A stretch of DNA of 64,000 bases from Rahnella variigena. GTDB lineage: Bacteria; Pseudomonadota; Gammaproteobacteria; Enterobacterales; Enterobacteriaceae. Position numbers and translations under genes: made by a program. The notes beneath the pieces are model-generated. The model worked only from the letters and a program-made list of their open reading frames with translations, did not search any database and had not been told where the DNA came from. Below are positions 3,134-30,183 of the stretch, one piece after another. The DNA lies in NCBI RefSeq assembly GCF_003610915.1, contig NZ_NSDJ01000001.1:4340001-4404000 (forward strand), written 5' to 3'. Position 1 is the stretch's first letter; the number at the start of each line of letters is the position of its first letter.

Positions 3134-3482
3134 GGATTGCTCCTTCAGATAGTTAATCACTACCACGGGAGCTGCGAAACCCTTTGGTGGTAGCCCAGAC
3201 GAGGTTCGCAGTACCGGTTCTGAAGGCTACCGGCCAGCCCGAAGGCTGCCCCGCCTGAGCCACCATTGAGATACTGCATGTGGATTACAGCCACATTTTC
3301 AATAGTTGCGTCAAAGCGACGGCACTCTCAACGTGAGGTGCCGCCTTCAGATTACACGAGCTGCGAAACTCGGCTGCGGATTGTGCCGCAGCGGTGTAGA
3401 TTATATCGGAAATCAGAAGGGCTGACCAAGTAAGTCGTTGAAGTTGCGAGGTGGGTTCCATGAAGTTTTTATGGAGGAAAAG
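3134..3482. other. Non-coding region resembling a P4-satellite leader (Icd/Ash type)
   Basis: No convincing gene is seen. A 12-bp direct repeat (GAGCTGCGAAAC) occurs at 3169-3180 and 3358-3369, with an inverted partial copy (GTTCGCAG) near 3204. A 7-bp stem CTACCAC/GTGGTAG frames the first copy. The phrase around 3190-3220 (TAGCCCAGACGAGGTTCGCA) resembles, from memory, the immunity/leader region of P4-like satellites where Ash/Icd proteins and the small CI RNA are made. This is recognition by eye and not a search result. Confidence 0.4.
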
Positions 3483-27725: not shown

Positions 27726-27991
27726 GAGCTAATGATAAAGAAAATCCATTAATGTAAGGAAATCGAAAAGCAATATCTGTTAGGATTATCATTCGCCAAT
27801 TTTAAATTTTACTCTCTTTCAGCGCCGGTATTCCGCGACCGAAAAGGGTAAAAATGGCTATTGAGATAATTCATCGTTTTAAGTGAAATATCTCCTGCTA
27901 CTTATTGGAATAACATTAAGTCAAATTATTTTAATTTGGCACGGGCAACCTTTGCCCGTTAATAAAAATTAAATTGACAAGGAATAGTAAC

Positions 27992-28663
27992 ATGATGAAA
28001 TCAGTTTTCATTTTGTCGGCAATGATTGCGGCAGGCACATTAACAGGGTGTGCAACAGAATCATCCCGCACGGTTGAAGTTCAGAAAGTCGCTTCTTATA
28101 ACACGCAATATAATGGCCCCCGCAGTCCGATTTCTGTCGGCAAATTCGATAACCGCTCAAGCTATATGAGTGGCATTTTCTCTGACGGCGTCGATCGTCT
28201 GGGCAATCAGTCTAAAACTATTCTGGTGACTGACCTGCAACAAACTGGCCGCTTTAATGTTTTAGACCGCACCAATATGGCTGAAATTAAAGAAGAAGCC
28301 GGAATTAAAGGCCAGGCACAAACGCTGAAAGGTGCTAATTACGTCATCACCGGTGATGTGACTGAGTTTGGTCGTAAAGAAGTCGGCGACAACCAGTTGT
28401 GGGGCATCCTCGGCCGCGGTAAGCAACAGATCGCTTACGCTAAAGTCAGCCTGAATGTTGTCAATGTTCAGACCTCTGAAGTGGTGTATTCCTCACAGGG
28501 CGCAGGCGAGTATTCCCTGTCCAACCGTGAAATTATTGGTTTCGGCGGCACTGCCAGTTATGACTCTACCTTAAACGGCAAAGTGCTGGATTTAGCAATC
28601 CGTGAAGCGGTGAATAACCTGGTGAATGGGATCGAAAGCGGCGCATGGCGTCCGGCTAATTAA
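27992..28663 (+). CDS. CsgG/HfaB-family lipoprotein
   Basis: The ATG at 27992 (AAGGAA upstream) gives 223 residues with a lipobox (LTGCATES) near residue 19. The body is CsgG-like: ISVGKFDNRSSY, LVTDLQQTGRFNVLDRTNM, GANYVITGDVTEFG, and VVNVQTSEVVYSSQGAGEY. CsgG proteins can form outer-membrane secretion pores, but many short relatives are only lipoproteins. It is the first gene of a three-lipoprotein operon, and this trio is familiar beside each other in other Proteobacteria. The operon interrupts the methionine salvage cluster. Confidence 0.85.
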   Translation: MMKSVFILSAMIAAGTLTGCATESSRTVEVQKVASYNTQYNGPRSPISVGKFDNRSSYMSGIFSDGVDRLGNQSKTILVTDLQQTGRFNVLDRTNMAEIKEEAGIKGQAQTLKGANYVITGDVTEFGRKEVGDNQLWGILGRGKQQIAYAKVSLNVVNVQTSEVVYSSQGAGEYSLSNREIIGFGGTASYDSTLNGKVLDLAIREAVNNLVNGIESGAWRPAN

Positions 28664-28681
28664 TAATACGGATATTATCAA

Positions 28682-29059
28682 ATGACATTACGTAAAACCC
28701 AACGCGCCGTGTTAAAAGGTGGATTTTTTACCCTAGCGTTATTATTAGCGGGCTGTGCAAAACAGGCTGACACATCATTATATAACTGGGATAACTATCA
28801 GAAGACCGTTTACCAGTATTATCAGGGTGACAAAGTCGGCCCGGAAGAACAAATCGCGTCATTAAAAGAGTCGATTGAAAAATCCCGTGCAACCGGTAAA
28901 GCCGTTCCACCAGGCCTGCACGCCCAACTGGGATTACTTTATGCCAATACCGGGCATACCGATCTGGCATTTCAGGAATTCAATACTGAGAAAAGTTTAT
29001 TTCCTGAGTCAGCAACCTACATGGATTTCCTGCTGAAAAATAAAGGGAGTGTTAAATGA
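28682..29059 (+). CDS. DUF4810 lipoprotein
   Basis: The 125-residue protein has a lipobox (LLLAGCAKQ, Cys about residue 25) and a body of two helical hairpins (SLYNWDNYQKTVYQYYQGD, then GLHAQLGLLYANTGHTDLAFQEFN) resembling a TPR-like unit. It fits the DUF4810 family that accompanies CsgG-like and GNA1162-like lipoproteins. Its stop overlaps the next ATG by four bases (ATGA), so translation is coupled. Confidence 0.82.
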   Translation: MTLRKTQRAVLKGGFFTLALLLAGCAKQADTSLYNWDNYQKTVYQYYQGDKVGPEEQIASLKESIEKSRATGKAVPPGLHAQLGLLYANTGHTDLAFQEFNTEKSLFPESATYMDFLLKNKGSVK

Positions 29060-29715
29060 AACGTTTATTCCTGCTGACCGGTATGGTGCTGACGTTGTTG
29101 CTGACAGGCTGCGCGAAAAAAGCGTCTTACGATTACACCGCGTTTAAAGAAAGCAAACCGAGATCGATTCTGGTCCTGCCGCCGGTGAACCATTCGCCGG
29201 ACGTGAACGCCAGCCACAGCATGCTTTCAACTGTCACGGCACCGCTGGCAGAAGACGGCTTCTATGTCTTCCCGGTGGCTGTCGTTGAAGAAACCTTCAA
29301 GCAGAACGGCATAACCGGTGCGGAAGATATTCGTTCAGTCAGCGCCGCCAAACTGCGTGAAATTTTCGGTGCGGATGCCGCGCTTTACATTGATATCACC
29401 AGCTACGGCAGCAGCTACATGGTGGTTTCCAGCGAAACCCGTGTCACCGCTAATGCCAAACTGGTGGATTTACGCAATGGCAAAGTGCTGTGGACAGGTA
29501 ACGCCACTGCCTCTGACAGCGAAAATGACAACAACAACGGCGGGATCATCGGCATGCTGGTTCAGGCTGCGGTGAAGCAAATCTCCAGCACGATTTCCGA
29601 CAAAGGTCATGATATCGCCGGGCTCACCAGCTACCGTCTGCTGAGTGCATCTCAGACCGACGGCCTGCTGTACGGCCCACGCTCACCGAATTATGGTAAG
29701 CAGGTAATGCGTTAA
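29056..29715 (+). CDS. GNA1162-like (DUF799) lipoprotein
   Basis: The 219-residue protein has a lipobox (LLLTGCAKK, Cys about residue 20) and the DUF799/GNA1162 body: RSILVLPPVNHSPDVNAS, FYVFPVAVVEETFKQNG, GADAALYIDITSYGSSY, then a Gly/Asn-rich NDNNNGGIIGMLVQAAVKQI stretch. The neisserial relative is a surface-exposed lipoprotein. The three adjacent lipoproteins are likely to form one outer-membrane-associated complex; the cargo or role is unknown. Confidence 0.85.
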   Translation: MKRLFLLTGMVLTLLLTGCAKKASYDYTAFKESKPRSILVLPPVNHSPDVNASHSMLSTVTAPLAEDGFYVFPVAVVEETFKQNGITGAEDIRSVSAAKLREIFGADAALYIDITSYGSSYMVVSSETRVTANAKLVDLRNGKVLWTGNATASDSENDNNNGGIIGMLVQAAVKQISSTISDKGHDIAGLTSYRLLSASQTDGLLYGPRSPNYGKQVMR

Positions 29716-29723
29716 AGGCCTGA

Positions 29724-29753
29724 AGAAAGCCGTCCCTTGCGGGACGGCTTTCT
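29724..29753. terminator. Strong hairpin terminator shared by convergent genes
   Basis: AGAAAGCCGTCCC / GGGACGGCTTTCT is a perfect 13-bp stem with a 4-base loop, 9 bp after the GNA1162-like gene. The stop codon of the minus-strand small gene (29757) abuts its other side, so it can terminate both transcripts. Confidence 0.85.
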
Positions 29754-29756
29754 GGC

Positions 29757-29876
29757 TTACTTGCCCGGTGCGTTAATGATCACATTAAGAGAGTTGTTGG
29801 AAATGCTCCAGCTCCCCTTCCCTTGTGTCAGCGTCGCGCCGGTGACAACGAGAAAGATACAGATGTACCGTTTCAT
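29757..29876 (-). CDS. 39-residue small protein with hydrophobic N terminus
   Basis: The product starts MKRYICIFLVVTGATLTQGK and ends SNNSLNVIINAPGK. The first 19 residues look like a short signal peptide or membrane anchor; the rest is polar with an amphipathic strand pattern. AAGGA sits 8 bases before the ATG, and the stop is directly at a strong terminator. The AAGGA lies in the right arm side of a hairpin (29879-29898), 25 bp after the leader ORF stop. I do not recognise the family. Its real-gene status is inferred from start signals, terminator and leader, not from homology. Confidence 0.55.
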   Translation of the reverse strand: MKRYICIFLVVTGATLTQGKGSWSISNNSLNVIINAPGK

Positions 29877-29878
29877 TG

Positions 29879-29898
29879 TGCGGTCCTTGCAAAGACCG
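29879..29898 (-). promoter_or_regulatory. Hairpin enclosing the small gene's ribosome binding site
   Basis: On the minus strand GCGGTC (left arm) pairs with GACCGC (right arm) across 8 bases, and the AAGGA ribosome binding site runs from the loop into the right arm. The leader ORF stop codon (29901-29903) abuts the base of the stem, so a ribosome finishing the leader would open it. Confidence 0.5.
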
Positions 29899-29900
29899 CT

Positions 29901-29975
29901 TCACGTCAACACCACCGGTGATATCTCCGTGAAAACAAGCGCTAGTCTGCGCCTGCGTTGACGGTCGTTGGACAT
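29901..29975 (-). CDS. Arginine-rich leader ORF (24 codons)
   Basis: The peptide begins MSNDRQRRRRLALVF and is rich in arginine early on (five Arg in six residues from codon 5). AGGAAAGG precedes the ATG closely. Its stop is at the foot of the RBS-masking hairpin of the small gene. The frame is open further upstream to tandem ATGs near 30032, so a longer version of about 43 codons is possible. It looks like a regulatory leader peptide. Confidence 0.45.
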   Translation of the reverse strand: MSNDRQRRRRLALVFTEISPVVLT

Positions 29976-30027
29976 CCTTTCCTGAAACCGGTGCCCGTTT
30001 GCTAAGACGGCGTAAAGGCCCGGCGTC

Positions 30028-30058
30028 ATCATACACGCATTGCCTGGGTCCTTGACAA
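30028..30058 (-). promoter_or_regulatory. Candidate promoter of the leader/small-protein unit
   Basis: TTGTCA (30053-30058) and TATGAT (30028-30033) on the minus strand are spaced 19 bp, slightly long. The transcript would have a leader of about 145 bases before the small gene. Confidence 0.4.
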
Positions 30059-30087
30059 ATAAGTTCAAAAAGTAGACTATCCCTCCC

Positions 30088-30106
30088 GCTAGTCTGCGCT
30101 TGCGTT
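30088..30106. repeat. 19-bp direct repeat, upstream copy of the leader's arginine segment
   Basis: GCTAGTCTGCGCTTGCGTT matches 29941-29959 in 18 of 19 bases. The two copies are 147 bp apart, a multiple of three, and the downstream copy encodes the RRRR run of the leader ORF. The upstream copy lies behind an in-frame stop and upstream of the candidate promoter. Confidence 0.6.
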
Positions 30107-30151
30107 ACATCAGTAACGAAGCCCGCTGGAAAGGCCGCTAACCTGACCAGC

Positions 30152-30183
30152 ACAAAAAAACCACCTTTCGGTGGTTTTTTTGT
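30152..30183. terminator. Bidirectional terminator after mtnD
   Basis: ACAAAAAAACCACC / GGTGGTTTTTTTGT with a TTTC loop has a U tract in both directions. It terminates the mtnBCD operon on the minus strand (21 bp after the mtnD stop). Confidence 0.9.

What the first reader, a model, noticed from the sequence alone, without database searches (positions are those of the whole stretch)
29757..30106. Possible undescribed leader-peptide-controlled small protein unit inside the methionine salvage locus
On the minus strand a candidate promoter (30058/30028) is followed by an arginine-rich ORF (29975-29901) with a strong AGGAAAGG start signal. Its stop codon lies at the foot of a 6-bp hairpin (29898-29879) that contains the AAGGA ribosome binding site of a 39-codon ORF (29876-29757). 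That ORF has a signal-like N terminus and ends against a 13-bp terminator. This is the geometry of translation-controlled leader systems, in which a ribosome on the leader opens a hairpin in front of the downstream start. An arginine-run (RQRRRR) could make the switch respond to arginine or charged tRNA-Arg supply, or to an arrest signal. A second, in-frame copy of the arginine-coding segment lies 147 bp upstream. I do not recognise either product.
Basis: partly seen in the sequence, partly recalled or inferred. Interest (0 to 1): 0.8.

Follow-up and report, generated by a model that had tools for sequence, protein, structure and literature searches.

The report
Known timP–TimR toxin–antitoxin locus
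The small two-ORF unit is a Rahnella copy of timPR, a known bacterial system in which a small RNA silences a tiny membrane toxin; the supposed leader peptide is most likely an accident of the RNA's folds.

Summary
Window 29723–30023 (−) matches Rfam RF00126, ryfA, at 220.6 bits. That RNA is now known as the timP mRNA of the type I toxin–antitoxin locus timPR. The 39-codon ORF is TimP (NCBIfam toxic_TimP, E 3.5e-8, below its curated cut-off). The hairpin with the ribosome-binding site is stem-loop SL4. The "AGGAAAGG start signal" is the 3' arm of SL1. The "147-bp upstream repeat" is the pairing segment of the predicted divergent antitoxin RNA TimR (about 30082–30182, +).

Across 41 homologous 5' UTRs, SL1–SL4 and the SL1–SL3 pseudoknot covary: 95.9% of cells paired, 20 of 37 pairs with two-sided changes, 0 of 500 shuffles as high. 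The leader ORF is intact in 13 of 41, without sign of protein-level constraint; TimP in 40 of 41.

Published Salmonella work shows pseudoknot-dependent translation, TimR repression and no role for a (different) upstream ORF; its alignment legend lists Rahnella aquatilis.

One fresh angle: the TimR-binding loop is the most variable region compared and changes in step with TimR. In 10 multi-copy genomes the cognate TimR is the strongest partner for 23 of 26 mRNAs.

The parts
29723..30023 (-). timP mRNA (Rfam ryfA, RF00126), about 301 nt
   Evidence: 220.6 bits against a gathering score of 80, E 2.7e-59, full model 1-296
30028..30058 (-). candidate timP promoter, TTGTCA - 19 nt - TATGAT
   Evidence: sequence only; 4 nt lie between it and the Rfam 5' end; not listed by the stock scan, which allows spacers of 16-18 nt
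29976..30018 (-).
   Evidence: helices 1 and 2, 95.8% and 96.3% of cells paired, 5 of 7 and 3 of 4 pairs with changes on both sides
29913..29993 (-). pseudoknot, SL1 CACCGGT 29993-29987 with SL3 ACCGGTG 29919-29913
   Evidence: helix 3, 99.7% of cells paired, 4 of 7 pairs with changes on both sides; essential for timP translation in Salmonella (PMC11228461)
29936..29958 (-). SL2 (29955-29936) with the TimR-binding segment 29958-29940
   Evidence: 96.8% of cells paired, 2 of 7 pairs with changes on both sides; loop is the most variable of the regions compared; -40.8 kcal/mol duplex with the TimR segment
29900..29933 (-). SL3
   Evidence: helix 5, 97.6% of cells paired, 5 of 6 pairs with changes on both sides
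29880..29899 (-). SL4 sequestering the AAGGA Shine-Dalgarno (29888-29884)
   Evidence: helix 6, 88.6% of cells paired, 1 of 6 pairs with changes on both sides (weakest covariation); present in the MFE fold
29757..29876 (-). timP CDS, 39 codons, small toxic inner membrane protein homologue
   Evidence: NCBIfam NF040796 toxic_TimP E 3.5e-8, 33.6 bits (curated cut-off 45); frame kept in 40 of 41, pN/pS 0.55 in a 13-locus set
29724..29753 (-). timP intrinsic terminator, 13-bp stem, 4-nt loop
   Evidence: fold; not listed by the stock scan
29901..29975 (-). candidate 24-codon leader ORF of the finding; most likely incidental
   Evidence: intact in 13 of 41, pN/pS 0.85; no family hit in NCBIfam or Pfam at E up to 1
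30082..30182 (+). predicted antitoxin sRNA TimR (5' end inferred, about 30082-30087)
   Evidence: pairing segment 30087-30105; fold z -6.35 for 30080-30182, much of it from the terminator 30153-30182
30052..30080 (+). candidate timR promoter, TTGACA 30052-30057 - 17 nt - GACTAT 30075-30080 (alternative -10 TAGACT 30073-30078, 15-nt spacer)
   Evidence: sequence only, not listed by the stock scan; its -35 overlaps the timP -35 on the other strand

Best explanation
This is a chromosomal timPR type I toxin-antitoxin locus of a Rahnella species. A divergent promoter pair drives timP mRNA leftwards and the antitoxin RNA TimR rightwards. The timP mRNA folds so that SL4 hides the Shine-Dalgarno of the 39-codon toxin. 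The mRNA becomes translatable only when part of SL1 pairs with SL3 in a pseudoknot. TimR pairs with SL2 through a 19-nt stretch, destabilises the pseudoknot and keeps TimP off; if TimR falls, TimP is made and goes to the inner membrane. Shown here by sequence comparison: the anatomy, the covariation, TimR complementarity and its co-change, TimP frame conservation. Inferred from the Salmonella experiments: toxicity, membrane target, pseudoknot requirement, TimR mechanism. Not seen in anything I read: transcription or toxicity in Rahnella.
For: RF00126 full-length hit. E. coli chromosomal matches listed are annotated timP. NCBIfam toxic_TimP. 37 pairs in 41 sequences: 95.9% of cells paired against 86.8% in shuffles, 154 two-sided cells against 42.4, sliding controls 38.6-47.7% paired. 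Pseudoknot 99.7% of cells paired. TimP frame in 40 of 41. TimR segment: duplex -40.8 against -21.0 +/- 3.2; both copies change together in the genus, ACCC in 2 loci and GACT in 4. Cognate TimR region strictly strongest for 18 of 43 mRNAs and among the three strongest for 36 of 43. TimR fold z -6.35 with terminator. Experiments in PMC7667032 and PMC11228461 (parts read, see full report).
Against: TimP scores below NCBIfam's curated cut-off (33.6 against 45). SL4, the hairpin of the finding, has little covariation (1 of 6 pairs) and 6 of 41 sequences do not form several of its pairs in my alignment. In one search the cognate is not among the three strongest for 7 of 43: beaten or equalled by 3 others for L002, L007 and L050, 4 for L026, 6 for L051, 10 for L067a, 17 for L055. 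Two E. coli papers argue that RyfA acts as an sRNA independent of the peptide (passages of PMC8205139 and PMC13188913). No expression data for this strain.
Confidence: 0.95

Rival explanations
1. Leader-peptide control: a ribosome translating the 24-codon arginine-rich ORF opens SL4 and couples translation to TimP, perhaps sensing arginine or tRNA-Arg.
For: The 24-codon frame is intact in all five distinct mtnD-site Rahnella 5' UTRs tested and in 13 of 41 overall. Its stop is 24 nt before the TimP start and next to SL4. The upstream ORF disproved in Salmonella (nt 53-55 to 77-79; PMC11228461) is 8 codons long and so not this one; by position in my alignment its start would be ACG in the window (inferred, I did not align the Salmonella sequence). 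The exact ORF has therefore not been tested.
Against: Start is ATG in 17 of 41 and the frame intact in 13 of 41; pN/pS 0.85 in frame against 0.60 and 0.73 in the other frames. Arg codons are not conserved. The SD-like run is an SL1 arm that changes with its partner. A ribosome on this ORF would unfold SL2, SL3 and the pseudoknot that translation needs (inference). [quoted passage not shown]
Confidence: 0.04
2. The transcript acts mainly as a trans-acting regulatory RNA (RyfA), with the small protein of minor importance.
For: In UPEC, ryfA alleles with the TimP ORF disrupted complement the ryfA mutant (passages of PMC8205139); similar discussion in PMC13188913.
Against: TimP frame kept in 40 of 41 homologues; pN/pS 0.55 in 13 loci. 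TimP toxicity, localisation and TimR control shown in Salmonella (PMC7667032). The two roles do not exclude each other.
Confidence: 0.1
3. A decayed, non-functional ryfA relic.
For: The locus is not found next to mtnD in 5 of 9 named Rahnella neighbourhoods (1,200 bases searched on each side), so it is dispensable at this site.
Against: Promoter-like elements, TimP frame, the stems, the pseudoknot and a matching TimR segment are all in place; both pairing copies change together within the genus.
Confidence: 0.03

Closest known systems
timPR (timP/ryfA-TimR) of Salmonella Typhimurium and other enterobacteria
   Same: Divergent antitoxin sRNA, four stem-loops, SL1-SL3 pseudoknot, SD in SL4, small signal-like toxin (38 aa in Salmonella, 35-42 aa in the loci used here), TimR site in SL2
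   Different: TimP of 39 aa; located between mtnD and a GNA1162-like lipoprotein gene, not at sseA-sseB; a 24-codon open frame across SL2-SL3 where the Salmonella paper tested an 8-codon one
tisB-istR1, zor-orz, shoB-ohsC, dinQ-agrB (type I TA with divergent sRNA)
   Same: Gene arrangement (as stated in PMC7667032); for tisB also antisense control far upstream of the RBS
   Different: Different genes; tisB needs mRNA processing and a standby site, timP does not (PMC11228461). No sequence comparison with these was run here
Translational attenuation by leader peptides; hok/mok and repA/CopA uORF coupling
   Same: Small upstream frame near a hidden RBS
   Different: No conserved leader frame here; coupling ruled out for the Salmonella uORF (PMC11228461)

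Membership tests
timPR type I toxin-antitoxin | ryfA/timP RNA covariance match | tested here: met
   220.6 bits, gathering score 80
timPR type I toxin-antitoxin | small signal-like hydrophobic protein of the TimP family in the conserved frame | tested here: met
   the NCBIfam score is below that model's curated cut-off, so this rests on frame and position as well; no signal-peptide predictor was run
timPR type I toxin-antitoxin | divergent sRNA with 5' complementarity to the timP 5' UTR, then an intrinsic terminator | tested here: met
   (sequence only; transcript not observed)
timPR type I toxin-antitoxin | SL1-SL3 pseudoknot | tested here: met
   99.7% of cells paired, 4 of 7 pairs with two-sided changes
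timPR type I toxin-antitoxin | SD sequestered in SL4 | tested here: met
   stem present in the window, 88.6% of cells paired across the alignment, little covariation
timPR type I toxin-antitoxin | toxin action at the inner membrane, repression by TimR | not testable with these tools
   shown for Salmonella in PMC7667032 and PMC11228461
Leader-peptide attenuation system | conserved, selected leader ORF | tested here: not met
   13 of 41 intact, pN/pS 0.85 against 0.60 and 0.73 out of frame
Leader-peptide attenuation system | conserved sensing codons (Arg run) | tested here: not met
   run differs within the genus and beyond
Leader-peptide attenuation system | translation of the leader changes downstream expression | not testable with these tools
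   a different uORF was disproved in Salmonella; this frame is untested

The most novel reading that the evidence does not exclude
The apical part of SL2 with its TimR counterpart is a fast-evolving address code. The two copies change together, so duplicated or mobile timPR modules become deaf to each other's antitoxin while keeping a near-constant toxin and RNA frame. A newly acquired copy then adds its own addiction rather than being silenced by the resident TimR.
Probability: 0.35. Interest if true: 0.4.

Novelty: already known. Interest (0 to 1): 0.15.

Why it matters
As a finding it is a useful correction: an unrecognised toxin–antitoxin locus was read as a new leader-peptide switch. If the address-code reading is right, timPR would be a compact natural set of orthogonal antitoxin–toxin RNA pairs, including copies on plasmids, and would make it testable how RNA-based addiction modules avoid cross-silencing.

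Tried and rejected
Leader-peptide attenuation: tested by frame survival and pN/pS against the other frames and rejected as best explanation. The pN/pS set is small (13 loci) and the RNA itself is constrained, so this is absence of support, not proof.

The stock promoter and terminator scan listed neither promoter and neither terminator described here. For the terminators I infer that their stems absorb the T run.

My first script read minus-strand loci in the wrong orientation; its rows for those loci are void and were redone.

The MFE fold of the whole RNA does not show the lower SL1 stem, nor the pseudoknot, which that kind of program does not predict. The structure counted was written by hand from the window sequence and the published four-stem model. 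Control (b) favours any structure derived from one of the sequences, so weight rests on the two-sided changes.

Rows dropped: of the 46 places at 80 bits or more found, L006 and L054 (identical to another over 155 nt) and L048, L066a, L072a (5' part did not align). The 25 lower-scoring loci that I held were not used, and weaker matches (below about 39 bits) were mostly not fetched or not used. The TimP count accepts any ATG at nt 141–156 opening 33–45 codons; the one miss is L067a, whose start is ATA. The leader pN/pS uses only the 13 loci with an intact frame.

Against the address-code reading (26 mRNAs in the 10 multi-copy genomes that I compared; genomes whose second match was weak, such as G010 and G568, were left out): the cognate is not the strongest for 3 of 26 (L008 in G006, L055 in G505, L074a in G666). 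For L066a (G424) it leads by only 1.1 kcal/mol; its 5' part did not align, so the segment used is probably misplaced. Several crossed duplexes are still strong (L074b −44.2 against −49.2; L020 −38.2 against −45.6; L049 −35.0 against −42.9; L069a −34.6 against −41.3). L055 and L067a have identical target segments. All of these are calculated energies of naked duplexes. One search was a general search for cross-talk among type I systems; I saw only its listing and abstracts.

Full report
What is there. A search of the whole window against Rfam gave four matches over threshold. One covers this stretch: ryfA, RF00126, window 29723–30023 minus strand, 220.6 bits, E 2.7e-59, full model length. Blastn in the E. 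coli collection finds a partial relative in 5376 of 5426 genomes; [quoted passage not shown] one opened). NCBIfam's toxic_TimP model hits the 39-codon ORF at E 3.5e-8, but below its curated cut-off (33.6 against 45 bits), which may be why such loci stay unannotated.

Known biology. I read parts 1–3 of 7 of PMC7667032 (mBio 2020), its section 13 and found passages, and parts 1–3 of 5 of PMC11228461 (PNAS 2024). ryfA was long taken as a non-coding RNA. In Salmonella it encodes TimP, a 38-aa toxic inner-membrane protein, and the divergent sRNA TimR pairs with the 5' UTR to block translation; matching mutations in both RNAs restore the repression that single mutations lose. The PNAS paper finds four stem-loops with the SD locked in SL4, and a pseudoknot between SL1 and SL3 that is essential for translation and is destabilised by TimR. 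A start-codon mutation of a putative uORF (nt 53–79) did not affect timP translation. Its Fig. 3 legend lists Rahnella aquatilis among the aligned homologues (I saw the legend, not the figure). The mBio paper raises and doubts uORF coupling because the upstream ORF is not conserved. Against the toxin view, E. coli studies (passages of PMC8205139 and PMC13188913) report or argue that ryfA phenotypes do not need the peptide.

Host and site. The window's MtnD is 96–99% identical to those of nine named Rahnella loci, so the host is a Rahnella or very close kin. Of the 80 mtnD neighbourhoods returned, four hold the window's timPR by blastn, all in Rahnella: R. bonaserana, R. perminowiae, R. victoriana, R. 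bruchi. The other five Rahnella loci do not have it within the 1,200 bases held; one of them matches only at the terminator. The locus therefore comes and goes at this site.

Structure test. I aligned 41 timP 5' UTRs and counted a hand-written structure of 37 pairs. 95.9% of cells pair against 86.8% in column shuffles; 20 pairs have two-sided changes (shuffles 12.9); 154 two-sided cells (shuffles 42.4); none of 500 shuffles reaches these three. Slid controls give 38.6–47.7% paired. The pseudoknot pairs in 99.7% of cells, with two-sided changes at 4 of 7 positions.

Leader ORF test. At the aligned position the start is ATG in 17 of 41, and the frame to the aligned stop is intact in 13 of 41; TimP is intact in 40 of 41. 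In the 13 loci, pN/pS is 0.85 for the leader frame and 0.60 and 0.73 in its other frames; for TimP it is 0.55 against 0.74 and 1.01. The five distinct mtnD-site Rahnella 5' UTRs all keep the leader frame, but their arginine run changes where the TimR-binding loop changes. The uORF disproved in Salmonella is an 8-codon one and so not the same ORF; the window's ORF has not itself been tested. I hold its use as unlikely (0.04), not excluded.

TimR. On the plus strand a TTGACA box (30052–30057) overlaps the timP −35 on the other strand. The predicted RNA carries the 19-nt pairing segment at its 5' end (30087–30105) and ends in a 13-bp hairpin terminator at 30153–30182. Its duplex with timP is −40.8 kcal/mol; 500 shuffled upstream segments give −21.0 ± 3.2, best −34.3. 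Over 43 loci the cognate duplex has median −43.7, against −32.2 for the median of non-cognate means; the cognate is strictly best for 18 and within the top three for 36, and the 7 exceptions are listed under evidence against. Within the genus the loop reads ACCC in L002 and L004 and GACT in L003, L005, L006 and L007, with the same change in both the mRNA and the TimR copy.

A possible fresh angle. The SL2 loop is the most variable of the nine regions compared (1.54 bits against a mean of 0.75). The window's genome carries a second, diverged timPR at C1:568675–568980 (54.6 bits, below Rfam's cut-off); cognate energies are −40.8 and −41.6, crossed ones −21.1 and −23.1. In G709 two tandem copies encode identical TimP but carry different loops. 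Over 10 multi-copy genomes the cognate is the strongest partner for 23 of 26 mRNAs, with some crossed duplexes still strong (details in Tried and rejected). Relatives also occur in 43 PLSDB records, of which at least four of the 20 listed are over 1 Mb and look like chromosomes rather than plasmids. The two mobile copies I inspected, on an E. coli plasmid with phage structural genes and on a conjugative Serratia plasmid, hold a TimP frame and a strong TimR match (−46.2 and −52.7). The phage collection gave one match, in a 1,919-base unannotated record. In the parts of the timP papers that I read I saw no discussion of such an address code; no targeted literature search for this exact claim was made beyond.

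Verdict. Already known system, here in Rahnella; the mechanism in the finding is replaced by antisense- and pseudoknot-controlled translation.

Noticed in passing
G000:C1:568675-568980 (L017; inside L084): A second, diverged timPR-like locus in the same genome: 40-aa TimP-like ORF and a 17-nt exact upstream repeat; below Rfam's gathering score and no NCBIfam hit. Similar low-scoring matches occur in eight of the 13 genus mates searched.
   Followed up: partly
L069 (G709), about 1001-1297 and 1512-1808: Tandem timP copies with identical TimP proteins but different SL2 loops.
   Followed up: partly
L061 1501-1769 (NZ_CP020518.1) and L086 3001-3269 (NZ_CP074148.1): timPR-like modules without a listed timP gene on an E. 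coli plasmid carrying phage structural genes and on a conjugative Serratia plasmid, each with a TimP frame and strong TimR complementarity.
   Followed up: partly
window 30052-30058: The -35 boxes of the predicted timP and timR promoters overlap on opposite strands (TTGTCA / TTGACA), which could make their initiation compete.
   Followed up: no
window 3183-3270 (-): Rfam C4 antisense RNA (RF01695, 79.3 bits); from recall, an immunity RNA of P1/P4-type phages, so perhaps a prophage nearby.
   Followed up: no
window 27974-29715 (+): Three lipoprotein-like genes in a row (Pfam CsgG, DUF4810, GNA1162-like; lipobox seen by eye), convergent with timP.
   Followed up: no
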